64,000 bases of DNA from Dactylellina haptotyla (taxonomy: Eukaryota > Ascomycota > Orbiliomycetes > Orbiliales > Orbiliaceae): the NCBI GenBank assembly GCA_031310005.1, contig CM062380.1, forward strand, positions 1,054,001 through 1,118,000, read 5' to 3'. Numbering within the stretch: position 1 is the stretch's first letter; each line of letters opens with the position of its first letter. Of the stretch, positions 5,378 to 58,884 are shown piece by piece. The notes below the pieces were generated by a model. It saw only the letters and a program-made list of their open reading frames with translations. It was not told where the DNA came from and searched no databases. Position numbers and translations under genes: made by a program.

Positions 5378-6257
5378 TTATTTGAAAGGCATGATATCAG
5401 TATAAACGCATGCATCAGCCTCCAACCCATCTCCAAACCCAACCTCCATACAAAATTTAATAGCGCCCACCTCCTGTATATGCCGATCTAGATCTTCAGC
5501 TTCCCGCCTATTCTCAACATGCTCGTAAAGAGCCTCCTCGAAAGTCTTCTTTAATAAATCCATCACGGTTACATCCTCCGCAAACTCTAAAATGTTCGAA
5601 TTTGGATGTATCCCGCAGTTCTTATCTCGCGATGAAAACTGTAGCTTAACCTTGACGGTATCCCCCTTTTCTACCATTTCTGGTATCCTCGTTCTCCCAT
5701 TTATAATACCCGCAATATTTTTGTAAGAATCCGGAATCCTTAGGAAAGCCGGCTCGTTGAGAAAAGGACAGTCGCCGAGTTTGACGAGATCGAAACAAAG
5801 CTCTTCTTCCTCCTCCTCCTCATAGACTTCCTCGAGAGGCAGGCATTGCTTAACTCGCAGGGTTAGATCGTTTATCCCCGATACACTATTTGTGACTATG
5901 CCCTTTAACGACGAGTTCCTTTGAGTACCGGTAGATCCTGAATTATAAAGATAGCCTTAGACGTATTAGTAGCCCGTAATAACCAAACTTTTTAGAAACA
6001 TTATGAGACGTTGACCTCCAACCTATGAATTTGCAGAAAGGAGAATTGCAATCCTTCCACCGGAATAACAGTTGATGGACTTTATATCTAGCATTCGAAT
6101 TCGAGGGCCCTTTGTATCGACTATCCCGAAATTTATTTAGAAAAAATATCTCTTGCCATTTCCTGCTAACCTGACTTGCAGGTATCGCGTCACTGAACTC
6201 AAGGTATTCCAGAATCCCTTGGTGGATCTCAGGCGGCAGATCTGATATTTTTAACAT
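5378..6257 (-). CDS. F-box protein, same family as the gene at 56877
   Basis: Probable substrate adaptor of an SCF ubiquitin ligase. Two exons (6257-5984 and 5937-5378) around a 46-bp intron give 277 residues; the frame closes exactly. The N-terminal F-box starts LPPEIHQGILEYLEF and includes SQVSRKWQEI. Further on are an acidic run of E residues, GDCPFLNEPAF, and EDVTVMDLLKK. The same landmarks in the same order (HQLLF, CPFLNEPAF, EDVTV) recur in the F-box protein at 56877-57644. The donor GTTATT is not the best consensus, but CTACTAATAC inside the intron is a strong branch site. No leucine-rich or WD repeats are visible, so the target-binding region is of unknown type. Confidence 0.8.
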
Positions 6258-30165: not shown

Positions 30166-31836
30166 TTAGTGTTTAATTTTCATCACTTTGCTACTACCCC
30201 GGGGATGAAGAGCTAGCGTTGGCTTTGCAATGCCAACAGTGTTGCGATCTCTCACCTCTGAACGGAAGGTCCACTCCTCTGGTTTTCCATCCAAGGCGTC
30301 TTTAGGCACTGGAGCGAATATATTCAACTTCAGGTGGTTCTGACAATTCATGCATCCTTGGATACCCAATCGGCTTAGAATAGGTTCACTGTGTAGAAGC
30401 ACATTTTTAGTCCCCAAGCCGGTACCTTTGACAGCCCATGTATCGACCACAAACGAGCCAGATATCAAGTCTCTCGTCAGCCCACCGACCTTCACCAGCC
30501 CGTACAAGTTCTTGTTAATCGCCGGAGCTCTCAAGCCACCCTTCTCCTCTGGCTTTGAATAAGGTGTCAAAGAGCTCTCGCCATAGGTGTATCCCAACGC
30601 TTCGATATCGGTCACCTGACTAGAGTTGTACTCGAACGGCCACAACCTTGTTTCAAGGGTCAGAACGTCGCCCTGTGCAACGCCCGCAACACCATCCGAT
30701 ATCAACCCCGGATCGTTAAAATCTTCAACCAACGCAAAATCAGTTTCATGTCCGTTCTTAACCTGCCATAACCAAAAGACATGATCGATCCAGCAATGGT
30801 GAAAGAAGAAAATTGGGTCCATTGCGGCTGTGTCATTTTCCCCCATATCGCCATTAGCTCCGAGGATTGCATCAGCATCGTAGCTACCTGCTCCATAAAA
30901 TCCACCAACAGAAAGATGGATCGCGTTGTGGGGACTTTCTAAGGAATCGTAATAATCTTGGTTTTCTTGGCCGGCCTGATCAATCCAATATGCCTGTGAT
31001 GCCGTATTGGAAAAGATATTGTAACTTGGTGCATCCAAACACCGTCTAAACCGATTGTGGACGGAATAAGTGTCTGGATAATTCGTGTTGACTTTTTTTG
31101 GATCATCTGGATCTGGTGTTATCTTGTAGGTACCGTTCAACCAAGACTTAACATTGTCATTGAGAATCTTGGTATTCTGCACTGGGTCTTTGTAATTGTT
31201 ATTATGGTCCTGAGTTTGAATTATATCTTGCGGGCCAACGAGACCGGAGAGCGGGTAGCGCACAGTAGTGTAGCCCTGAGTCTTGGTGTAATCGCCGTCG
31301 CCCGCATTATCAACAATCCCTTTTGCGAATGTGTAGGAGTACAAGGGATTAGGAATATCCTTTCCGTCGAGGGGGAAAGTGACTTGAGTGAGTACCGAAG
31401 GGATAACTGGAACGTTGAGGGGTTTTCCTTTTTCTTCACTCTCAACGACGAGTGTTTCGTCCCAGAAAGGCATCACCACATCTTCGCACCCGGCGATAGA
31501 TCGAAGTGCATTTTCCAGACGAAGGACATATGCTCGATGCCAAGTAGGGAAGAGTACAGAGGCATGGTGACAAAATCCTCCCCACCAGGAAAGAGTATGT
31601 CCCTGTGCACCGGGACCACGGAAGGGCTCGCCATGATAACCAGCTATGACAAAGAAAGAGTTTTGGTCGCTCGGAGGGAGAGCTTGAACTCCTTGGAACG
31701 CTCTAATGAGTTTCTCCAATGGCTCTTTATTACCACTGTCGTAATCATCTTGCAAATCTTGTAAGGACCTGCGAACCCGGATCGTCCGGAGCTGGGGAGT
31801 GGTTTTCCCTAAGACTGAAGTGATTGCACTCGCCAT
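30166..31836 (-). CDS. Tyrosinase (type 3 copper monophenol/diphenol oxidase)
   Basis: Oxidises monophenols and catechols to quinones, the first step of DOPA-type melanin formation. Single exon, 556 residues. Copper site A: H68 in AGYHGEPF, H91 and H100 in FCHHASVLFPTWHRAYVLRLE. C89 two residues before H91 can form the thioether bridge known from fungal tyrosinases. Copper site B: H303 and H307 in SPHNAIHLSVGG, and the HH pair at 346-347 in DPIFFFHHCWIDHVFW. The C-terminal extension (after about residue 400) with CMNCQNHLKLN is the lid domain that is usually cleaved on activation. No signal peptide is visible, so the protein is likely cytosolic, as in Agaricus and Aspergillus enzymes. Confidence 0.95.
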   Translation of the reverse strand: MASAITSVLGKTTPQLRTIRVRRSLQDLQDDYDSGNKEPLEKLIRAFQGVQALPPSDQNSFFVIAGYHGEPFRGPGAQGHTLSWWGGFCHHASVLFPTWHRAYVLRLENALRSIAGCEDVVMPFWDETLVVESEEKGKPLNVPVIPSVLTQVTFPLDGKDIPNPLYSYTFAKGIVDNAGDGDYTKTQGYTTVRYPLSGLVGPQDIIQTQDHNNNYKDPVQNTKILNDNVKSWLNGTYKITPDPDDPKKVNTNYPDTYSVHNRFRRCLDAPSYNIFSNTASQAYWIDQAGQENQDYYDSLESPHNAIHLSVGGFYGAGSYDADAILGANGDMGENDTAAMDPIFFFHHCWIDHVFWLWQVKNGHETDFALVEDFNDPGLISDGVAGVAQGDVLTLETRLWPFEYNSSQVTDIEALGYTYGESSLTPYSKPEEKGGLRAPAINKNLYGLVKVGGLTRDLISGSFVVDTWAVKGTGLGTKNVLLHSEPILSRLGIQGCMNCQNHLKLNIFAPVPKDALDGKPEEWTFRSEVRDRNTVGIAKPTLALHPRGSSKVMKIKH

Positions 31837-31961
31837 CGCGGAATGTCAAAAGAATTAATATTAATATATGAGAGTTTTATTTATATTAATAGATTTGGTA
31901 TATGTAATCTTGGTTTTCTTAAGGATATCGGAAAGGAATTAGGAGGAGGCAAGTGGGCTTC

Positions 31962-35027: not shown

Positions 35028-35606
35028 ATGTGGACTGGCCATTCGCAGGTGAGCTTTTCTTATCATGTTGAAAATTGAATTATAGGGAGCCGAGGGTTAA
35101 CATGTCAATGATAGCAGCAGGACCCAACCTCAGCTGGATATACGGTTGCTCTATTAGATACAGATTCAAACTACATACACCACGCAGAGTATGATAATTC
35201 CGCACCCGCCGAGCCCGAAAAAGAAAAGTCTATCGAGACTCTCACCGATGAGATGAACTTGGTAGAAGTTAACGACCCGGACTGTCTTTTCGATGAATCC
35301 CGCCGAAGTACGGAAGCTGCCCTGATACAAGAGACGGGTCGGCACTTACTCGCGACGAACACGACGAATAACACCTATGGTTTGGCTGTAACTCCCATGG
35401 AACGCTTCAAAAACACCTTCTGCCGGTCTGAGAATCCAATTCCTTGGTATTCGGGTACTCGACATCACCCATACAAGCCTCCCTCGTTTCTGAGACGAAA
35501 AAGAGCGGTTTCTTATCCGTCTAGCATGGCCTCTACTCGAAAACTAACATTGCGAACCCGAAGTTTATCTCACGCTTCTACGACGCCTACCAGTTATGTC
35601 GAGTAA
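35028..35606 (+). CDS. Orphan two-exon protein, 168 residues
   Basis: A 7-codon first exon (MWTGHSQ, 35028-35048) is joined in phase 0, through an intron with donor GTGAGC and acceptor AGCAG, to exon 2 (35121-35606). The total of 507 bp is in frame. The protein is hydrophilic: an acidic part with EPEKEKSIETLTDEMNLVEV is followed by a basic, aromatic and Ser/Thr-rich tail with PIPWYSGTRHHPYKPPSF and RKLTLRTRSLSHASTTPTS. No signal peptide, membrane helix or known domain. The basic RTRSLSHAS stretch offers possible kinase sites. It sits alone, with long CT-rich DNA on both sides. Function unknown. Confidence 0.6.
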
Positions 35607-39756: not shown

Positions 39757-40115
39757 CTACGCCCCAGGAATTGGCGGGACACAGTTCTCACCACATTTTT
39801 CTGCAGGGTGGCTCATGTTCCAGCAACCGCAAGGTGCATGTCCAGAAGGACAGTTGTAGACTCTTACATCGTCATCATTGCCTTCTGTGGATCCATCGTC
39901 GGACGGATTGGCTCTCTGGCTTATAGTGGGCTTTCGGCTCCCCCCAACCAACATTTCCTGATCAGAGTTTCCAAAAATGAGAGGATTGCGGGTCTCGGAG
40001 CGACGAGGGGTTTGCTGTGTGCGAATTTATGCTATTAGTATATAATATCGATAGTTTAGATGGAGAAAAGCTACAAAAGTACCTGGTTTGAACTCGAACG
40101 TTTCCCACGACACAT
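39757..40115 (-). CDS. Small CGC-motif protein A, 96 residues
   Basis: Member of a three-gene local family. Exon 1 (40115-40083) is 11 codons, MCRGKRSSSNQ. A 68-bp phase-0 intron (donor GTACTT, branch TACTAAT, acceptor CACAG) leads to exon 2 (40014-39757). Early in exon 2 is PLIFGNSDQEMLVGGSRKP; the I-[FY]-G-x-S-D-x4-[VL]-G-G-x2-K-P pattern also occurs in protein C. The C terminus is GHAPCGCWNMSHPAEKCGENC followed by VPP. Four of six cysteines lie in this tail and could bind metal or form disulfides. There is no signal peptide. A TATA box lies about 207 bp upstream. Exon prediction is strong because three genes share it; function unknown. Confidence 0.75.
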
Positions 40116-41214
40116 TTTTGGTGGATGAGGAGAATATATATCACTTAGTGGCGAGTGTCTTTGGATAGGTTGGGGAGAATGGCTGGTTATTTTAAAAGAG
40201 TTCGACTATTATGAGAGAGCTGGTAGATATTTGCAAGATGACACTGAAAGTCGACTCTCAGGGAATGTGGCCGGTGTGGAAGAAAACGAAGAAATATGAA
40301 GGTACTGGCAATAGACAGCTATTTATAGGCTCCAAAGAGGTGAAGAGAGGGAAAATCGGGGCGCAAGAAACCATAAATGGACCCGTGTTCTGGCCCTGGG
40401 CCGCCCGGAGATACTGTTTTGGGCTCTGGGTGTCCCGGTCGACAACTAGCGTGTGGGTCACTCTGTTGAAACAGGAGCAAATGCGCGGGAGCGAATAAAA
40501 ACTCTCTATCAATACTTATGATAATTTCACGCTTTCTGGGAGACTATCTGCAATATGCAATCTCGTTTCACAGAACGCCGCTACTTTCTAAATATATTAT
40601 TCTCTTCGGAAACAGGTCTCTGTCGTCGACACGGAGAAATATAGGCCGGCTATCTGAACAGAAATCAACTCTCTCGTACGAACAGCTTCAGATGCATTGC
40701 TGTATCGGTGTTGCACATGGCAAATGTACCTCCCTATCTCTCTATTTAAGCTGTGAAGCCCTAGCACCGTTCATATATTCATAGCAATCTGACTCGATTA
40801 AGAGTTGTCACAGAGAGAACTAAAATGGGTATTCTGCGTCCTTGGGTACCTAATCTAGACCTACCTGATACTTAGGACCAAAACTTTGGGGGATCAGAGG
40901 GTCACTTCAAGTTCATTAATTGAATTCCACGAAAGATGGCTACAAATATATGCCGGAACGCTTGCTAAGGGCAGAGGAGATAAAAGTGGATGTGTTTACA
41001 TTTATGATGGCCAAATTCTCCACCTCGCGTCCTTCTGTGGCCGATTGTAACTGGAAACGAGACACGCCAGAAAGAAAACCACAAATAATACCGCTACTAG
41101 GAGCGTAAATCTTCATTAGGTTCTATCTTCGAGCATGACTTCGTCGGGCTAGTAAAAGCACTCACCTAGCGCATATAGGACACCTCCCACATATATATAG
41201 TGAAACGTGGATGT
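40116..41214. other. Spacer between small genes A and B
   Basis: 1.1 kb holding the promoter of gene A and the 3' region of gene B. No other gene seen; frames such as 40211-40498 (plus) overlap the A promoter and are not coding-like. Confidence 0.55.
40317..40329 (-). promoter_or_regulatory. TATA box of small gene A
   Basis: Minus-strand CCTATAAATAGCT about 207 bp before the ATG. The same spacing class is seen for genes B and C. Confidence 0.7.
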
Positions 41215-41594
41215 TTATTTCTCCCGATTGCATCCACAAGCCGTCTTTTTATCTACAACGAAGGCTACCTTTGTTGCTTTAGACGGTACAAAGCTCCTAC
41301 TTCCATCTTCGCCGGACGAGCCAGGGGCAGAGGGCGGGCTAGTTGAAGCTGGAGGGCGGTTGCCTACTTCTTCCGGAGATAGCGTGAAGTCAGAAGATCC
41401 TAAAATCAAGGACTTTTTTCCTTGCTAAGAAACAAGAGCGAAAAGTTTAGCAGAAGTTACCTCCAAGTTTGAACATTCTTCGTAGGCAGTTCATGCTTCT
41501 TGTAATGCGTGACTCTATTTTAAGATTTATATACATAAGACTCATTTGGAAATATTCTTACCTCAATGTTTTGGTTCTGGTTTCCTGAAGACAT
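41215..41594 (-). CDS. Small CGC-motif protein B, 80 residues
   Basis: Exon 1 (41594-41562) is again 11 codons, MSSGNQNQNIE; the NQNQ is shared with protein C. A 137-bp phase-0 intron (GTAAGA donor, TTTCTTAG acceptor) leads to exon 2 (41424-41215). Exon 2 starts QGKKSLILGSSDFTLSPEEV, giving the family I-x-G-x-S-D motif near the same place. The middle is rich in P, S and G. The C terminus is KKTACGCNREK: the CGC is kept, but the protein stops before the WN...CVPP part found in A and C. It is either a shorter natural variant or a truncated copy. TATA box about 175 bp upstream; no signal peptide. Confidence 0.7.
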
Positions 41595-44500
41595 TTTGCT
41601 TTTGGAAATGAGGCCGAAGAGGGGCACTTGGTGCGATGAGAAAAAATTATTGTTGAAGACAGAGAGGGCAAATGCGGAAGTAGAAAGCTGAGCACTGTAG
41701 AAACCACGAGTATCAAAGTGAATAAGACATGGAACTAGAGAAGGGAGACCCGCTGGGAGAAATCGGAGTTTATATACTGGAAAGATGGAGGGAAGCACCC
41801 AACTGGACAGTGTTCTGTTCAATGTCAACAAAAAAATACTCCCCCAAAGCGGCGTGCTCTCCATTTGCTGCTATGAAGAGCACCGACCGCCTAGAAACCC
41901 CCCGGGGACCAAAAGGAGAAAAAATAGTAGCGCACGACAACGAGGGGAATCCTTGACGCTAACTCACTGGTCATCCCGACGTGCTACCAAATGTATATAC
42001 GGTAGTCGTAAGCAGAAAGAGAACAAAAGTCCTTTACGGACACAATATTAGAGCAATTCCCAGTTACGTGCTGAGACAAAAGCAGATCAGAGGCCCACTT
42101 GTCCGTCCTCTGATTTCTATTAATCCAACAGTGACATACATACCCGGGAGGCTCAAGAAAGGATTACAACCCCTCGTCGCATATTGCTATCGCTTTCCAT
42201 CTCTCGACGACTCATCCTACTATTACCCAATTAGAACTACATTTTGATATTTATGGAGTCCAGGGATAATTTCATATCCATCTATCGCAGGGTCCTTATC
42301 ACAATGCTAACTGTCAAAGCACACGTACCGATACTAGATCACCGTCCATGAGTGATCAAGCATGCTGATGCGAAATCCCATTTTCTGCTTCTAAACGGCG
42401 CAACAATATACAGCTCATATACGGCAAGAAGGAAAGCCAAGAGTGGAGAGAATATCAAAAGGGCTTGTTCTCGACCGAGGGGTTCTTCCCCTTTCGAATA
42501 AGATCAACCCTAAAGGTGGGTGGGTCCCAGTTGTCTCCCGGACAATATATTATAGCATTGCCTGTTCCCAGGATGGAATTGCGCTTTTATAGCGAAGGAT
42601 CTTATCTTCGCCCGAAGGTGAGATGAAAAAGAAAAAATGAAGGAGAATGGTGGAAAAGGACCGAGCCCTGTCCTCAAGTTGAGCCCTTTCCTGTCCTTTC
42701 CTGGCTGCAGACCTGTGTTGCAGTCCCGAACTTGCGGGATGCGTTAGCCTGGAGCCCGTCTTGTGCTGGACAAAAGTTGCGGTGCCGACCGAGAGCTCTG
42801 AGCGGTTAGGAAATGAATTTTCAAACCAACAAGGCGGAATATTGTATTCGCTGGGCTTTTTCGTCAGGCTGCCTTCAAGGGCTTGATGGTTTTCCTTTCC
42901 TTGCCCTTCCCTTGCTAGATTCTGGCCGCTACAAACTTTCGTTCCCGAGCTGTTGCACTGGGCCCGGGAAATTCGAACCTCGCTCTTGGGTGAACGAGAC
43001 CAACCTCTCCACGCATCATGCAGCTCCCAAGCACATCACTTAAGCACTTCCTCAGGAATGTGAGCTCAAGTTTTTCTGATACTGCGGACAGTTTCGGGAA
43101 CCCAGTCTCTAAAGACCTTCTTGTGGCCGCTTCGACTGCGGTTTCGACCAAATGCGAAGTGTAAGGTTACCTTCGAATATCGGATCACCCGTTGGTGCGC
43201 TCTTTGGGCTGGCCCGAACCTTCGAAGCGCTGGAAGCCTACAATCCACCTTTGTACTCTTTCTTTATATTCTCGAGCGAAACAACGACGCACCCGGATGT
43301 TGCCGACTGATAGGAAATCTCCCTGATGACTAAGTAGTAAGTACTATCAGACGAGCCTGCCAACTTTGCCGAGCCAAAATACCGATGATTCTTGTCGGCG
43401 CCAGCAAAGAGAAAATGGACGTCAATACAAGTATACACTGGCATTCTCATTCTCACCCAAGCCCCGCCGGAACTAACTAAAAGTTGCATATCTGATTTAT
43501 CCTCTACCGTTCCTCAAAGCCAAGATAACAGAGTTAAGTAAGAACTAGTTCCCAATTACACCCAGGCTGCGAACGCCTCTTCGAGATCTTCGACACGAAC
43601 TCGGGATTCGAGGAAGACCCTTGTGTTGTGCTGAATCGTCGGCAACACATTCTCGGAGGGTCCTTCATTGAACTCTTTTAATCAGCTTTCGTCAAATAGA
43701 TAATCAAGACACTATGCTGCTTTTATAACTACTATCGAAGATCAAGGATTCGGGTTTAATGATTCAGGCGTTGATATGCTGGTATCGAGACTAGTTGATA
43801 TGTTATTTTAGCGTTACTACAAGTGCATGCGGTACAGGCATTCTGAATTGCTTTTTGCATTTATGCCTTCTTATTGATAATACGGACAATATTCTATCTC
43901 TCCTAGCTAGCTGTCGGCCAGACCAAGGTACGCTAAAGTCCTACTAAAAGTGGTTCCACAGTAGAGATATATGATTACTATGGTGACTGAGGAATATCTC
44001 GATATGCAGGTAAATTTTACGATACAGAACATCAAGGTATGATATTGCCAGTGCCCCGACATCAAGCCCTGCTACCTGGCTAGAGTCAAACGAAACCATG
44101 ACCTCGTGCATCTCAAGAGAGTTTAGTGCGAATGGTTCTTAAGCTGGATGCTCGACTGAGGATGGAAGTCAAAATTAAGTTGGTAAAAAGGAAATATCAT
44201 TCACATTTGCTATCCTCGCATCGGCATGGGGGAGCCAGGCGAGACGGCAACTTGCAGAACTCGTCTAGGTTCCGCAATTCCCCTGCAGGATTTCTTTTGG
44301 TTTGGCACTTGTGTTCCTTCCACCCGGAGCTTCGTCTCGGGCGGAGGTCCAACCGGGGTTAGTCGAAGTATTCTTTCGTAAGAGGAATTCTTCCTGTTTG
44401 GGATTACGAATGCCCCCTATTGGGATGATTGGGCACCAGAATGATTTTGAATGCGCTTATGTTCTATACAATTACACGAAGAGACGGAATCTTCGATGGC

Positions 44501-45077
44501 CTTTCTAGAAGTACTAAATGAGCCTACAAATCTCTTTATCTAGGAATACGATGACCTGCTAGCCGCTTAGGAATGTTGACTCTAGCATTTTCTGAGAAGT
44601 CTCTGATAAGGAGGTGTCGTTAGGTCCCTGCGGACAGCTTATCAATGGACTGTCTCAGTAAAAGTAGTTTTGAAGACGCGTTTTCCATACAGAAAATATG
44701 TGCCCAGATTGAAATGCTAGTGTAAACAAAGGACGTCTGCACAATTTGCCCATCCAGCCGGACCCAGTCCCACACCATTAGTCTATGGTGGATGTTCTCC
44801 TAGTTTGAACCTCCGAGGGTGTCCCATCTGTCTATCCCTTAAATATTCCGCAAACCGCCGAAACTCTATTTACTTGAATCTGGTCTGTGGACCCGCGCCT
44901 TCAGAAGCAAAACTCAATTCTTCCCACTCTATAAACCAGCCTACACAGCTTGGAAATCACAGCGCAACTACAGGTCGTCAGGTACCTCGTAACGCGAGTG
45001 ACGGGGTGTAATAAGCCCTCTACTTTATTCCACCAGTTTCTATATCATGGCAGGTCACTACTAGCATTTACACTTAG
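41595..45077. other. Gene-poor spacer
   Basis: 3.5 kb with no intact gene. On the minus strand at about 43560-43690 a protein-like run (NVLPTIQHNTRVFLESRV, then EDLEEAFAAW and a stop) is preceded by an in-frame TGA and a readable segment (LDYLFDES), which may be a gene remnant. The left end holds the promoter of gene B. A TATA-like CTATAAACC occurs at 44928-44936. Confidence 0.4.
41767..41777 (-). promoter_or_regulatory. TATA box of small gene B
   Basis: Minus-strand CAGTATATAAACT about 175 bp before the ATG, followed by a CT-rich leader. Confidence 0.65.
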
Positions 45078-46144
45078 GTTTCTCCGTGTCTACGGTATCT
45101 CCAGTCTCTGGGCGACTTATTCCACTTCGATAACATCCCGTACCATCCGAATCTACGCGCTCGGGAACCGTACAATTCTGGCTCCCTCGATACCCACCGT
45201 CTCGACCAAAGAAAGCCTATCGACTTTCTAGCTATCATTGGCGACACTGTATTCTTGATTGGACAAGAATTTTTTGCTGGGCAAACAGCTTGTGACACAT
45301 TGGGCCTTTAGGCACAGAACCTCATCAGGAACTTCGACTCTTTCACCAAAACGTCCTCATCCAGTGCGAGATCCAGGCAGGTAGTTATAGAGCAAACTCC
45401 TCGCCGATTGCAAAGAGTACATAAGAACACTTCTGAGCAGATCTCATTCTGCTGCTTATGTTACAATGCCAAATTATTGAATTATTGAATCCTATCCATG
45501 TTGATCGTTCAAAGAGAAGCTCGTAGCGTAGACCACAACACAAGCATTCGAAACAGTGATTGTGTAAATAGCATAGTTGCATTGCCTAAAGAAATAATCC
45601 AATGGTCCTTGAGTCTCATGTAGGTTGAGTCGGAGATCAGACGATCGCGTTCTCTGTTTTGTCGCGAGATATATCGGCGTCCGCACTTGAAATTACTGTG
45701 ACCTTGCCGGTCTGGTCCGGTCCAGAAACAAGGCCAAAAGCTTCCAATTTTCTTTGTTCGAATTCAAATGTTTCAAGGCTCACTCGAAACTCAGATGCGG
45801 GATAAATTCTCCGTGTACTTTTATCGACGTAGAATCATGGGATGCTGAACTCTTGAAAACATTATTCGAGAATTTTGGATCCATAAATACAACAGCAGAG
45901 GGCAACGATACCTGCACTCAGATTAATGAGACTGGATTGAACAGCCCAATGCCGAATATGGTGCCCATACTTGAAGGCATCGCGACAACAACACACACAA
46001 TACCACAAATACCAACAGACTGTCTTTTGCGTTGTTTGGTGAGTGAAACTACAGATATTAACATCGCGTGCCAGCGCTCTCGGCATATTGCGTACCTAGA
46101 CAGAAAAATACTGCCAAACCACCGCTGCCCCTCTCAAGGCATAG
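45078..46144 (+). pseudogene. Gene-like fragments of unknown family
   Basis: Two protein-like stretches on the plus strand. The first (45078-45311) follows an ACACTTAG acceptor and contains SLGDLFHFDNIPYHPN and KPIDFLAIIGDTVFLIGQ. The same frame continues past its stop as AQNLIRNFDSFTKTSSSS, which an optional 64-bp intron (GTATTC...TTTAG) would join. The second (45691-46038) contains CGINSPCTFIDVESWD and LLKTLFENFGSINTT. It has no ATG, ends at a GTGAGT donor and can be joined to a 15-codon last exon (46100-46144). No start exon was found for either, so they may be parts of one decayed or unresolved gene. No family recognised. Confidence 0.25.
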
Positions 46145-47692
46145 AACTTTCTTGTACCTTCTCGAACTGTGTTTCATTATTGTGGGGATCATTGCAAATC
46201 CTACCTCTCCTTTGAAACGCTTTCTGGCGCTTGCCCATTCGGAGCGTCTGAACATCCAGTCCGCGCCTACTCTAGAAACGGTTCCACAAGGCTGATTTCA
46301 GTGCATTAACAAACTGGCGGCTAGCTACCTTGTGAGCCCCCCAATAAATATTTCTAAAGAAACATATTCTTCATTTTTACTTGTGTGAAATTTCAAAAAT
46401 ACCTATCGCGTATATCGCCACTCAGAACGGCACCGACCAGGGAATTTAGTATTTGGCGAAGCGCTCAGACAAACGATATTCCGACAATGCACATGCTTAC
46501 TCATATTGTTTGTTATTCTCGCTAATTGAAAGGCTGGGATCTCGACCCCGGCAAGGTTAAGATGTTGACTGTCTGCGGTAGTTTAGCGGTAGTCCTCCGG
46601 CGGCAAAGCAAACGGTTTCCATCCTCAAGGGGAAGGTAGGAGCAAGTCGGCCAACGGTTCTGATGTGCAGTCGTCTGTAAGGAAGCTGTCCTTTTCCTCT
46701 ACTTGATATACTGGTTTCCTTTCCTCTGCTGCTTTGGCGTGCGCAGCTTGAAGCCGCGTAATTTGGCTCTGTTAGTGGCTTGCAGCACTGGTTGTTGAAT
46801 TGTTTTCTGCAGACAAGCAGCGGCCAGGGCTTTCAGGTACATCTACGCCTGCATGAGGTCTCCCTGTCGTATTAATTCCTGTTTCAGGTCATAAAACCGC
46901 TGAAAAGGTTCAATCCTTGTGAAAAATCTTGGGATTGTGCCCTCGATTCCTTCCTTAAGTTGACATGAGCTCTGTGCCACATTCATCGAACGATTGGCCT
47001 TTAAAGGCTCAAGTACAGCCTAATTTTCTCGAATAACAAGGCTGAGGCCGCGAATAGGATCTAGGGAGCCTCGCAAAAAAACCTTCCTCCTTTCTCCTTC
47101 GCGTTCGAATTTTTGGTTGAGGTTGCCCACCGGACCGTCCCTCAACACAGCACTAATCCGCCCACCTTCTTGGAAAAACAGCAATATGCAAGTATCCAGG
47201 GGCAGATAATAGATGGGAGGAACAGAAGATAGCATTCCCACTTTTAATTTCTTGGGGCGGGATCCTTTTTGTGCTGGCTGCCTCGTTGACTGCACCAATT
47301 TCACCGAACATTTACCTCCGCACACATCAAATGTTCTCCCGATGATGCTTCTCTCCTCTCCTTCTTATCTGCATTTCACCTACGACAGTTCTTTCGAGAT
47401 AGATTATATATCATATTCTTTTTCAGAGTCTTCGTAATAAAATCTATTCTGCCGATTTCGTATTCTCGCTGAAAAGCGCAATCATCGTCATCACACAACG
47501 GCCTTCGGAGTTGCTCCTTCCTTTCGACGACTTCACAAACTGTATTATATCCACCCATGGCTCTTCTCAAATTTCGATGGAAGAGTTACTAGCACCGCCG
47601 TCGTCTAATTCCTAAATAAAACCTCTGCCTCGTAATACCTGGACTTTCTTTGATCCATTGCATTCACTCGTTGTCCCGTCTACACGTCTCCC
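46145..47692. other. Spacer
   Basis: 1.5 kb without a supported gene. The right end (47300-47690) is CT-rich and may be the promoter and leader of the small gene at 47693. Confidence 0.45.
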
Positions 47693-48062
47693 ATGGAATC
47701 TGGCTTCTGTCAACAGCGACTCCAGCGGATGATCTCCAAACGTTAACGTCAAATAAACATCAAACAATACAAATATCTATTCAAGATATGGATTCGTGAT
47801 TGCAGATAGCTAAATCTAACATATACAAACGCTGCTAGCTGTGTACGATGAAAACGCACGCCTGAGACTTATCGTCAACAGTCGGAAATTTATTGTCGAT
47901 GACACGGTCGCGTCTTATTCGGTACCTACTCCTGCATCGTCTATCATACCAAAACCCTATGTGCCTCCCAGATCTCGAGTCTTTGCGAGAAACTCAATCA
48001 AAACATTTCACTCACGTTTTCAACAGACGATATTTTTATTATTTGGCAGTTTCTCCTTCTGA
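47693..48062 (+). CDS. Possible two-exon small protein, 90 residues
   Basis: ATG in a CCCATGG context opens MESGFCQQRLQRMISK (47693-47741). A 97-bp intron (GTTAAC donor, ATCTAAC branch, GCTAG acceptor, phase 1) leads to exon 2 (47839-48062), and the frame closes at 273 bp. Exon 2 reads VYDENARLRLIVNSRKFIVD, then SIIPKPYVPPRSRVF, and ends with a hydrophobic LLFGSFSF. The leader is CT-rich. No known domain and no signal peptide. The donor is weak and an overlapping frame (47893-48183) is also open, so this is tentative. Confidence 0.35.
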
Positions 48063-49152
48063 TCAGATTCTCTATCATCGTCTAATCGAAAGTTTTCAAC
48101 TTCTTAACCTTTGTTCGCAGACAGAAACCTCAGATTTCAATAATACAGAAACAGCGCTGAATGGAAACATCAGTAACACTTGATTTAATCACCTATTCTC
48201 AACCCTTCGATCGTTAGAATCTCAGTCCACTGGAGCGGCAATACCCCCTTTCAGGCTACATCACGAACCTGGGCAATAGTAGCAAAATGGAATTCGTGTA
48301 TTGTGCCGCAAAAAGTCTCCAACATTCTCCATTTATAAAAGACCGTAGCTTGTATTGTAAATGTGACTCTCCAATCGTTTCCTGTTCGTAGATAGCAGTT
48401 TTTACGAACAAACCATACATGCTTTCCTTTCACACCTTAGTGCGTAGTTTGGCAACCTTTTGCGCACTTGAACTGGCCGTATCCTACGCCCTGACTATGG
48501 TCACACCTCCAAGAGCGCAGTTATTGTCATGGCTTGAATCGATGAAGAGGCTTGTGGCCATAGCAGGACGGCCTGCATGTTCTACCCACCAAGTGTGCAT
48601 GCCATGTTCCTAGCCACACTCCGAAGACTGGTCGCGCGATTGTTTGATGTTCGTTACGTATCGAACGCGAATGATCGGATAACCCCCGTCATTCCCTTTT
48701 ATTGGCCTAGCACCTACACGATTAGATTTTGGTCACTGCAAAACGATCTTTAAATTATCGGAAAAACAAACAAAATAAGAACCCAAGACTGAGCGGGAAA
48801 AAGGGAACAGCAAAGCAAGAGAACCTCACGACGAATGTTTCGATGGAAGGTATAAATGCGAAAAGGATCCAAGACGGAGATCTCCCCGCGTAGAATAATT
48901 CTGTGTTCCTCTTGGCCTCCATTGTTGCTCTCACAATCTTGTGCCAAACTTTGAACTATATACAAAATGTGTGAGGGATCTCCAGGTCAAGATAATTGTT
49001 GTTTGAGAATGATTTCAATGCATTCAGTCAGGGGTATTAACCCACATGGTGAATAACAGTCCGATAATTTTCCAGCGCCAAACCAGTATAACTCCCCTTG
49101 TGGCTGTTAGGATTGAATAGGTATGGGACAAATACACCCCTCCAAATTGCGT
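48063..49152. other. Spacer with one doubtful open frame
   Basis: No supported gene. A 64-codon frame at 48419-48613 (plus) follows a TTTATAAAAG box by about 75 bp. It has a mildly hydrophobic N terminus (VRSLATFCALELAVSYAL) and a Cys-containing end, so a small secreted protein is conceivable, but nothing else supports it. Confidence 0.35.
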
Positions 49153-49590
49153 CTAACTGCTAGGCCCTTCTGTAACGATCCCGCCTGGCCCAACCACGCA
49201 ATCAACTGGAGGCACACAACCTGGACCACACAACTTCATTTCGTGGCGGTCATTCCAGCAACCGCAAGCAGAATGACCCTCATAGTATTTACGTCTGGCT
49301 TTGGTTGAAACCGGAAACCCATCTGGGTCGCTATCAGAGGCATTGCCAGTTTCCGTCAAAGATTTTGGTTTCTTTTCCCCACCGAGATACAGGAGACAGT
49401 CGGAGCCACCATATATTCTAGGCTCACGAGAAATTAGACGGCTAGAGCCCTAGTTCTCGTTAGTAACAGAAGATAAATGAGATAATGCTTGATATAATAG
49501 AGCGCGGCGGATTTCGATAGAAATGTCAGTAACTCATAGGAGAGAAGGTCAGCATACTTCACCATATTGGTTTTGATTTGGGAAACACAT
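49153..49590 (-). CDS. Small CGC-motif protein C, 109 residues
   Basis: Exon 1 (49590-49558) is 11 codons, MCFPNQNQYGE. A 108-bp phase-0 intron (GTATGC donor, TACTAAC branch, AACTAG acceptor) leads to exon 2 (49449-49153). Exon 2 contains EPRIYGGSDCLLYLGGEKKP, which matches the IFGNSD...GG..KP of protein A. The C-terminal half has YYEGHSACGCWNDRHEMKLC followed by GPGCVPP, close to A, plus a further tail with CVVGPGGIV. Genes A and C share a 16-bp identity over the CGCWN codons. No signal peptide. TATA box about 208 bp upstream. Function unknown. Confidence 0.75.
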
Positions 49591-49795: not shown

Positions 49796-49806
49796 GTATT
49801 TATAAA
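49796..49806 (-). promoter_or_regulatory. TATA box of small gene C
   Basis: Minus-strand TTTATAAATACTGG, preceded by a run of T, about 208 bp before the ATG. Confidence 0.65.
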
Positions 49807-56876: not shown

Positions 56877-57644
56877 TCAGTAGAACCTCCCTCGAGTCGC
56901 GACACCATACTGCAGACTTCGTTCTTTAAACCTCACGCTAGTCTCCGAAACCGATATATTCTCCCTCACAGCGTCCATCCCCTTCCCCGGATTATCGGCC
57001 AAAGTCCACCTTCCAATTGGTCGAAACTTGATCTTCCGCTGCCCGCTCGCTAAACCCAAATCCGACAACAATTTCGAGCTCTCGATCTCCCTTTTCAAAT
57101 TCCTAGCGATCTCCTCCACGGCCTGTCGTACCGTTATGTCATCTTCCTTCTCTTGCTTTCCCCCATCCCAGAAAAAGCCTCGAAGAATCGGCTTGCACGC
57201 CACCGCTCCAATTCTAAACTTCATCCTCTTTTCAACTTTCCGCGCTACCCCACCGCTACCGTGGTCACCACATTCTCCGGTCTCGGGCTTCTGTACAGGC
57301 GGCGCCTCAGTAAACAACGGCTCGTCCAAGAACGGGCAATTCGTTATATCAAACTTCATTGGTTCCCTCTGATTGTGGTCCTTCCAATAAAATAACGTAT
57401 ATTTTATAATCTCTCCTCCCCGCATTGTACACCTCATATGGCCCTTACTAGACTCGACTAGTCGATGAGTCTCTACATGGCATGTTTCGACGCGAGTGTA
57501 TCTCTTCTTCCGGAATTGGCGTTGATCTAACAGTATCTGATGCCACAAGGTACAGACCATACCAGCCAAAATCTGGTCGTTCGAAGAGAGGAAAGCAAGA
57601 ATTTGGTATTGTAGTTCCACAGGAAGGGATAACAACGTCGCCAT
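56877..57644 (-). CDS. F-box protein, same family as the gene at 5378
   Basis: Intronless gene of 255 codons. The N-terminal F-box is LPVELQYQILAFLSSNDQIL with CTLWHQILLDQRQF; downstream are LFYWKDHNQREPMKFD, ITNCPFLDEPLFTE and DDITVRQAVEEIARNL. The order of these blocks matches the F-box protein at 5378-6257 (LLF, CPFLNEPAF, EDVTVMDLL). A probable SCF adaptor whose substrate region is of unknown fold. The two copies differ in intron content (one versus none) and are diverged, so the duplication is old or they are members of a larger family. Confidence 0.8.
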   Translation of the reverse strand: MATLLSLPVELQYQILAFLSSNDQILAGMVCTLWHQILLDQRQFRKKRYTRVETCHVETHRLVESSKGHMRCTMRGGEIIKYTLFYWKDHNQREPMKFDITNCPFLDEPLFTEAPPVQKPETGECGDHGSGGVARKVEKRMKFRIGAVACKPILRGFFWDGGKQEKEDDITVRQAVEEIARNLKREIESSKLLSDLGLASGQRKIKFRPIGRWTLADNPGKGMDAVRENISVSETSVRFKERSLQYGVATRGRFY

Positions 57645-58884
57645 TGCTATTGTCGCGCACCCCTCTCTACCGCTTCGCTCGAATTGGCATAAAGTTCAAG
57701 GACGACCGGATTTGTGAAAGCTTACTGGTTGTGTTTCCCGCGTGATGTGTTAACGTGTTGTATTTTGCAGTCAAGGTAGGTGAGATTCGACGCCTTCTCC
57801 GGCTATTTATCGGTCTGAAGCGGGGACAGTCAGGCTCCTTATGAGTGGCCGTGCAGGTAAATTTAACCTCTACTTGGTGGTTAGCCAATGCTCGCGTGAC
57901 GTGTTGATTTATATTCGTCAATGGGCCCTGAGAAAGTTGGAGGGTACTCGATCGATTTTATGTGCCTGCGGAATCGATCCGGCAGATCCTAAAACTTTGT
58001 GTGACCTCCCTTTGTATTAGTAATTTGCCTCGGTTGTAAACTTTGGGTGCTCAGATAGTTTATTTGAACTCCGATAACTTGAATGTTTTGGACAACCCCG
58101 ACCTATGGCAGTTAAAGAGATCGTAGCTAATACTATCTTGTTTCGACTTTAGCAATTTAATGAATATGAAGTAACAGTGAAATTATTAGCATTAAGTTCA
58201 TATCTAAGATGGGTAGCGATATATGTTAAGTAGAAATATAAGGGTAGAGACACGCCAATTGATCAGCAAGAATATTCACAAAAGAGATTATTTTGAAAAC
58301 AGCATTCACCGACAAAAAATAACCGGAACCGACTCGAAAAAACAAACTCCTTGCTGTTTGGTATTCAGATCCCCAATATATAATCAATAGCAAAGGAAAC
58401 GAGATGGATAGACGGATGAAGTTTGAAAATATAGGAGATATCATAAAAAGATAAGCTCGCCGCAAAGTACTTGCGACAGCCAAGATATATCGCATAGACA
58501 TGATATATATAACGAGACAGAAATGAAGACATGATAGAAATGTATATGAATATGAGGAATGATATGTTCAGAAAGATCCCGAGAAACCGTCGCTTCGTAA
58601 ACAGGAATTCATGCTCGTGATGATATGTAGAAGCTTCTCAACGTGTTCCTTGACAAATGCAGACAAAAAAAAACAAAAACAAGACAAAAAAGAATGAAAT
58701 GCAAGAGTGATATCGTATACCGCTGAAACTTGCCCAAAGGTCAAAAGACCTTAAAATTTGCACCAAAACAAACCAAAACCAAATGATAACTCATGACACC
58801 TCCCCATGCCATCCCACCTGGAACTAAACTATAACCAAAAAAAGCAGTAAAATTCAGACACTATAAATCCCATCGTATCCTCCC
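57645..58884. other. Intergenic: F-box promoter and BUD2 3' region
   Basis: 1.2 kb. A-rich DNA from 58250 to 58880 on the plus strand looks like the long 3' UTR and spacer of the RasGAP gene. No gene seen. Confidence 0.5.

What the first reader, a model, noticed from the sequence alone, without database searches (positions are those of the whole stretch)
39757..49590. A local family of three small CGC-motif proteins with a fixed 11-codon first exon
Genes at 39757-40115, 41215-41594 and 49153-49590, all on the minus strand, share: a first exon of exactly 11 codons; a phase-0 intron; an I-[LFY]-G-[NSG]-S-D motif early in exon 2; and a CGC motif at the C terminus. A and C also share G-G-x2-K-P after the motif and CGCWN-x2-H-x3-x-C-G-x2-C-V-P-P, and B and C share NQNQ in exon 1. 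Frame closure of all three gene models and shared motifs on both sides of the intron make chance unlikely. I know of no named family with this layout. Lack of a signal peptide points to an intracellular role; the Cys/His tail could bind metal.
Basis: partly seen in the sequence, partly recalled or inferred. Interest (0 to 1): 0.78.

Follow-up and report, generated by a model that had tools for sequence, protein, structure and literature searches.

The report
Small local Cys/His protein gene family
A fungus-like genome carries two clearly related tiny genes and a probable third, close together on one strand, that encode small proteins with no named relatives in the libraries searched; two of them end in a possible metal-binding tail.

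Summary
The three minus-strand models close as described: 11-codon exon 1, phase-0 intron, exon 2 with I-[LFY]-G-x-S-D. A and C are certain paralogues (E 2.1e-11 and 7.5e-12 genome-wide), with 34 of 92 aligned residues identical and conservation concentrated at codon positions 1 and 2. B is a probable, far more diverged third member: 1 of 20,000 shuffles matches its A+C profile score, but its E is only 0.044 in 264 kb of six-frame translation. No other member was found, though that genome search is insensitive.

Correction: CGC is shared by all three, the Cys/His tail is not. A and C have H-x2-C-x-C-x4-H-x4-C-x3-C at identical positions (70-89); B stops soon after CGC. The spacing is one residue short of a CCHC zinc knuckle, and Pfam has no hit. 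All three have a TATA box 182-214 nt upstream.

Best reading: a lineage-restricted, mostly disordered intracellular family with a zinc-binding tail in A and C. Metal binding is inferred. Fungal relatives could not be searched, hexamer scores do not look coding, and AlphaFold was uninformative.

The parts
40083..40115 (-). Gene A exon 1 (11 codons, MCRGKRSSSNQ)
   Evidence: coordinates
40015..40082 (-). Gene A intron, 68 nt, phase 0, GTACTT...ACACAG
   Evidence: donor weak; no RNA evidence
39757..40014 (-). Gene A exon 2 with stop
   Evidence: similar to C, E 7.5e-12 genome-wide
39961..39978 (-). Gene A IFGNSD motif
39781..39840 (-). Gene A tail H-x2-C-x-C-x4-H-x4-C-x3-C (residues 70-89)
40320..40327 (-). 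TATA box TATAAATA, -212 from the ATG of A
41562..41594 (-). Gene B exon 1 (11 codons, MSSGNQNQNIE)
41425..41561 (-). Gene B intron, 137 nt, phase 0, GTAAGA...TCTTAG
   Evidence: no RNA evidence
41215..41424 (-). Gene B exon 2 with stop; ends ACGCNREK, no His and no further Cys
41389..41406 (-). Gene B ILGSSD motif
41769..41776 (-). TATA box TATATAAA, -182 from the ATG of B
49558..49590 (-). Gene C exon 1 (11 codons, MCFPNQNQYGE)
49450..49557 (-). Gene C intron, 108 nt, phase 0, GTATGC...AACTAG
   Evidence: no RNA evidence
49153..49449 (-). Gene C exon 2 with stop
   Evidence: similar to A, E 2.1e-11 genome-wide
49399..49416 (-). Gene C IYGGSD motif
49216..49275 (-). Gene C tail H-x2-C-x-C-x4-H-x4-C-x3-C (residues 70-89)
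49797..49804 (-). TATA box TATAAATA, -214 from the ATG of C

Best explanation
A, B and C descend from one small two-exon gene by old local duplication on one strand. They encode 80-109 aa intracellular, mostly disordered proteins with a conserved short docking-type motif near the start ([RK]-x3-I-[LFY]-G-x-S-D). A and C also carry a compact Cys/His tail that most likely holds one structural zinc ion in a CCHC-knuckle-like site (C73, C75, H80, C85, with H70 and C89 as spare or alternative ligands) and so binds a protein or nucleic-acid partner. B lost or never had that tail and may act as a partner-binding paralogue or be decaying. TATA-box promoters suggest inducible rather than housekeeping expression. 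Shown: open gene models, A-C homology, conserved Cys/His positions, TATA positions. Statistically supported: B's membership. Inferred: splicing, zinc binding, intracellular location, regulation, role.
For: A-C homology. Codon-position identities 48, 53 and 29 of 92, so selection acts on the protein, while the 700 nt upstream regions of A and C share no word of 10. B against shuffles and third best in 264 kb. The motif I[LFY]G[NSG]SD occurs only in these three. H70, C73, C75, H80, C85 and C89 are at identical residue numbers in A and C, and C-x-C-x4-H-x4-C occurs nowhere else in the 264 kb six-frame set. TATAWAW at -182 to -214 in 3 of 3, base rate 5.3% per 100 nt. No hydrophobic N-terminus; 66-74% disorder-type residues.
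Against: No RNA, protein or fungal comparative data. Hexamer scores do not look coding. AlphaFold gives mean pLDDT 37.5, so the tail fold is not supported. No zinc-knuckle hit in Pfam. The C-x-C spacing is one short of a classic knuckle. B keeps only the two Cys of CGC: it lacks two of the four proposed ligands (H80, C85) and both spare ones. Only two sequences carry the tail, so its invariance is weakly sampled. The TATA interval was chosen after looking at the positions.
Confidence: 0.45

Rival explanations
1. A and C are a real paralogous pair, but B is an unrelated small gene or a chance open frame next to them.
For: B is not found by A or C alone, B alone finds only itself, its profile E-value in 264 kb is only 0.044, and it lacks the Cys/His tail.
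Against: 1 of 20,000 shuffles reaches its profile score; same strand, same 11-codon phase-0 layout, I-L-G-S-S-D, G-x-[RK]-x-P and CGC in the same order; NQNQ shared with C; a TATA box at a similar distance.
Confidence: 0.2
2. The tail is a redox or disulfide unit of a protein exported without a classic signal (unconventional secretion), an effector-like or extracellular protein, not a zinc protein.
For: Small, Cys-containing, no relatives found, TATA promoter.
Against: No hydrophobic leader; A and C keep Cys interleaved with two invariant His, which disulfide proteins do not need (inference).
Confidence: 0.2
3. A copper- or metal-handling helper for the copper enzyme tyrosinase encoded about 8 kb away (30166-31845).
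For: The tyrosinase open frame (PF00264, E 6.4e-42) is on the same strand; the Cys/His tail could hold Cu(I) (inference).
Against: About 8 kb apart; shared regulation was not tested; B has no tail; bacterial tyrosinase caddie proteins are His-rich and different (recalled).
Confidence: 0.04
4. The genes are decayed relics, not expressed.
For: Hexamer scores do not exceed background; none of the six unassigned frames of 32-56 kb that I scanned scores over a Pfam cut-off.
Against: Open frames in all three, third codon positions the least conserved between A and C, six tail Cys/His positions unchanged in the A-C pair, A at -3 of each ATG and a TATA box upstream.
Confidence: 0.08

Closest known systems
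CCHC zinc knuckle (Pfam PF00098, C-x2-C-x4-H-x4-C; accession and consensus recalled)
   Same: C-x4-H-x4-C spacing, an aromatic residue beside the second Cys, compact unit
   Different: C-x-C instead of C-x-x-C; Ser or Arg, not Gly, before His; no Pfam hit at E up to 10; extra His three residues before the first Cys and extra Cys after the last
Fungal metallothioneins (recalled)
   Same: Small, no leader peptide, a C-x-C pair
   Different: One C-x-C only; 6 Cys in A (96 aa) and 7 in C (109 aa); two His and a Trp in the tail; no Pfam hit
Small secreted cysteine-rich effectors of fungi (recalled)
   Same: Small, Cys-containing, no relatives found in the collections searched
   Different: No hydrophobic leader peptide

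Membership tests
CCHC zinc knuckle (PF00098) | C-x2-C-x4-H-x4-C | tested here: not met
   A and C have C-x-C-x4-H-x4-C; B has neither
CCHC zinc knuckle (PF00098) | Score over the Pfam cut-off | tested here: not met
   0 families for 3 of 3 proteins at E up to 10; HMMER filters may drop weak hits
CCHC zinc knuckle (PF00098) | Binds zinc | not testable with these tools
   needs purified protein; AlphaFold mean pLDDT 37.5 gives no help
Metallothionein | Several C-x-C pairs, few or no aromatic residues (recalled) | tested here: not met
   one C-x-C in each protein, Trp in the tail of A and C
Secreted cysteine-rich effector | N-terminal signal peptide | tested here: not met
   best 11-residue hydropathy near the N-terminus is -0.67 (A), 1.06 (B), -0.38 (C); hydropathy only, no dedicated predictor was available
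The local A/B/C family | 11-codon exon 1, phase-0 intron, I-[LFY]-G-x-S-D, CGC | tested here: met
   3 of 3 genes; splicing itself not observed
The local A/B/C family | Full-length sequence similarity | tested here: inconclusive
   met for A and C; B supported by shuffles but E 0.044 in 264 kb

The most novel reading that the evidence does not exclude
A previously undescribed fungal protein family with a new minimal metal-binding unit, H-x2-C-x-C-x4-H-x4-C-x3-C, that arose and duplicated locally on one strand, with one paralogue (B) keeping the docking motif but lacking the metal tail and so acting as a natural competitor of A and C.
Probability: 0.12. Interest if true: 0.55.

Novelty: new member of a known kind. 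Interest (0 to 1): 0.3.

Why it matters
Small intron-bearing genes with no named domain are easily missed in annotation. If the tail binds metal, this is a new compact metal site and a clean set (tail present in A and C, absent in B) to test what it does. Otherwise it is an ordinary lineage-restricted duplicate family.

Tried and rejected
Led nowhere: Pfam, PDB by sequence, prokaryote genome contigs (136 pattern stretches, none confirmed), IMG/VR (40 stretches, none confirmed), paper searches (0 papers each; two papers, of which I saw only the listing with the start of the abstracts, neither about such a family by title). AlphaFold on exon 2 of C with A and B: mean pLDDT 37.5, pTM 0.16, so no fold search was made. 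Hexamer coding scores did not separate A, B and C from background.

Rejected candidates: the 1-mismatch genome match on C3 (L013) has an in-frame stop two residues before CGCWYGKH and unrelated flanks. The CWNERHSPQGC match on C4 lacks CGC and the front motif in the 401 bases read. A 10.2-bit profile hit at C2:979124-979324 lacks the full Cys/His spacing. A weak hit of A on C4 (E 0.17) was not read. One search gave 86 places (control 73); of these A, C and three others were read in frame. One search gave 55 places (control 33); I translated about a dozen of the matched stretches by eye and read the surroundings of one. No tRNA in the window. The 7.4 kb between B and C gave no other match in the genome at E up to 0.001.

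Limits: the genome search took single proteins only, and a 38-residue piece of C did not even find A, so distant members elsewhere are not excluded. A small middle exon inside B's intron was considered; it would leave a 36 nt second intron, which I judged too short (inference).

Full report
Setting. The window is C2:1054001-1118000 of a 39.8 Mb, 11-contig genome. Protein kinases, Sas10, Plus-3, RasGAP, tyrosinase and F-box matches fit a eukaryote; that it is a filamentous ascomycete is my inference. The 2-kb blocks of 32-56 kb have 41-47% G+C against 46-53% in the first 16 kb. Of six unassigned open frames that I scanned in 32-56 kb, none reaches a Pfam cut-off.

Gene models. Exon 2 has no Met before the shared motif in 3 of 3, so each needs an upstream exon; the in-frame stop lies 11 codons upstream of C's ATG; all three ATGs have A at -3. 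A's donor GTACTT is weak. The introns of A and C carry branch-point-like CTAAT and CTAAC near the acceptor, B has CTAAA (sequences; the consensus is recalled).

Relatedness. A and C find each other genome-wide at E 2.1e-11 and 7.5e-12; the only other match is one at E 0.17 for A. They share 34 of 92 aligned residues; identity by codon position is 48, 53 and 29 of 92, as expected for protein-level selection, while their 700 nt upstream regions share no 10-letter word and the only direct repeat of 22 nt or more that one search reports between the two loci is the stretch that encodes CGC. B: profile score 16.5 bits, 1 of 20,000 shuffles as good; exon 2 alone 13.4 bits, 3 of 20,000. In 264 kb six-frame it is third with E 0.044, followed by 10.2 bits. 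A profile that includes B shows no fourth member in that 264 kb: the next hits are C's own exon 1 and then 8.2 bits. The rest of the genome was searched only with single proteins and patterns, and one search shows that this is insensitive.

What the proteins look like. 66-74% of residues are of disorder-promoting kinds, with no hydrophobic leader. In A and C, Cys 2, 73, 75, 85 and 89 and His 70 and 80 sit at identical residue numbers, giving H-x2-C-x-C-x4-H-x4-C-x3-C. C-x-C-x4-H-x4-C occurs in 2 places in the 264 kb six-frame set, these two, against 0.5 per shuffled set: rare, but a short pattern alone proves little. B ends ACGCNREK and has no His. So the tail is a feature of A and C, not of the family.

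Mechanism. I judge a single structural zinc in a knuckle-like site the most likely use of the tail, with the front motif as a docking site (0.45 for the whole reading). Steps shown: open models, A-C homology, positions. Steps inferred: splicing, metal, partner binding, location. A TATA box stands at -212, -182 and -214; the base rate of TATAWAW in a 100 nt interval is 5.3% of 20,000 random placements in this window, but I chose the interval after seeing the positions.

Results against. The hexamer coding score, from a small in-sample training set, does not separate A, B or C from 152 background frames, so composition does not support coding; the evidence for coding is comparative. AlphaFold failed. 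Pfam gives no zinc-knuckle hit. B's E-value is modest, and B keeps only two of the tail's six Cys/His.

Verdict. A real, modest finding: a local family of two certain members and a probable third, with no named family in the libraries searched and no paper found on it with the queries, which hold open-licence papers only. Such orphan families are common in fungi (recalled), so I score it 0.3.

Noticed in passing
window 30166-31845 (-): Long tyrosinase open frame (PF00264, E 6.4e-42) about 8 kb from gene A, same strand.
   Followed up: partly
window 56877-57695 (-) and 5378-5956 (-): An F-box open frame (PF12937) and a second open frame with a similar FD...CPFLxEP stretch (12 of 29 identical, E 5e-4 in a single comparison) but no Pfam hit of its own: possibly scattered F-box relatives.
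   Followed up: partly
window 35115-35603 (+): 163-codon open frame with no Pfam hit over cut-off and the highest hexamer score among the frames of 32-56 kb listed: maybe another small orphan gene.
   Followed up: no
window 41523-41870 (-): The frame of B's exon 1 stays open about 90 codons upstream, across the TATA box, with an earlier in-frame ATG; an N-terminally longer B is not excluded.
   Followed up: no
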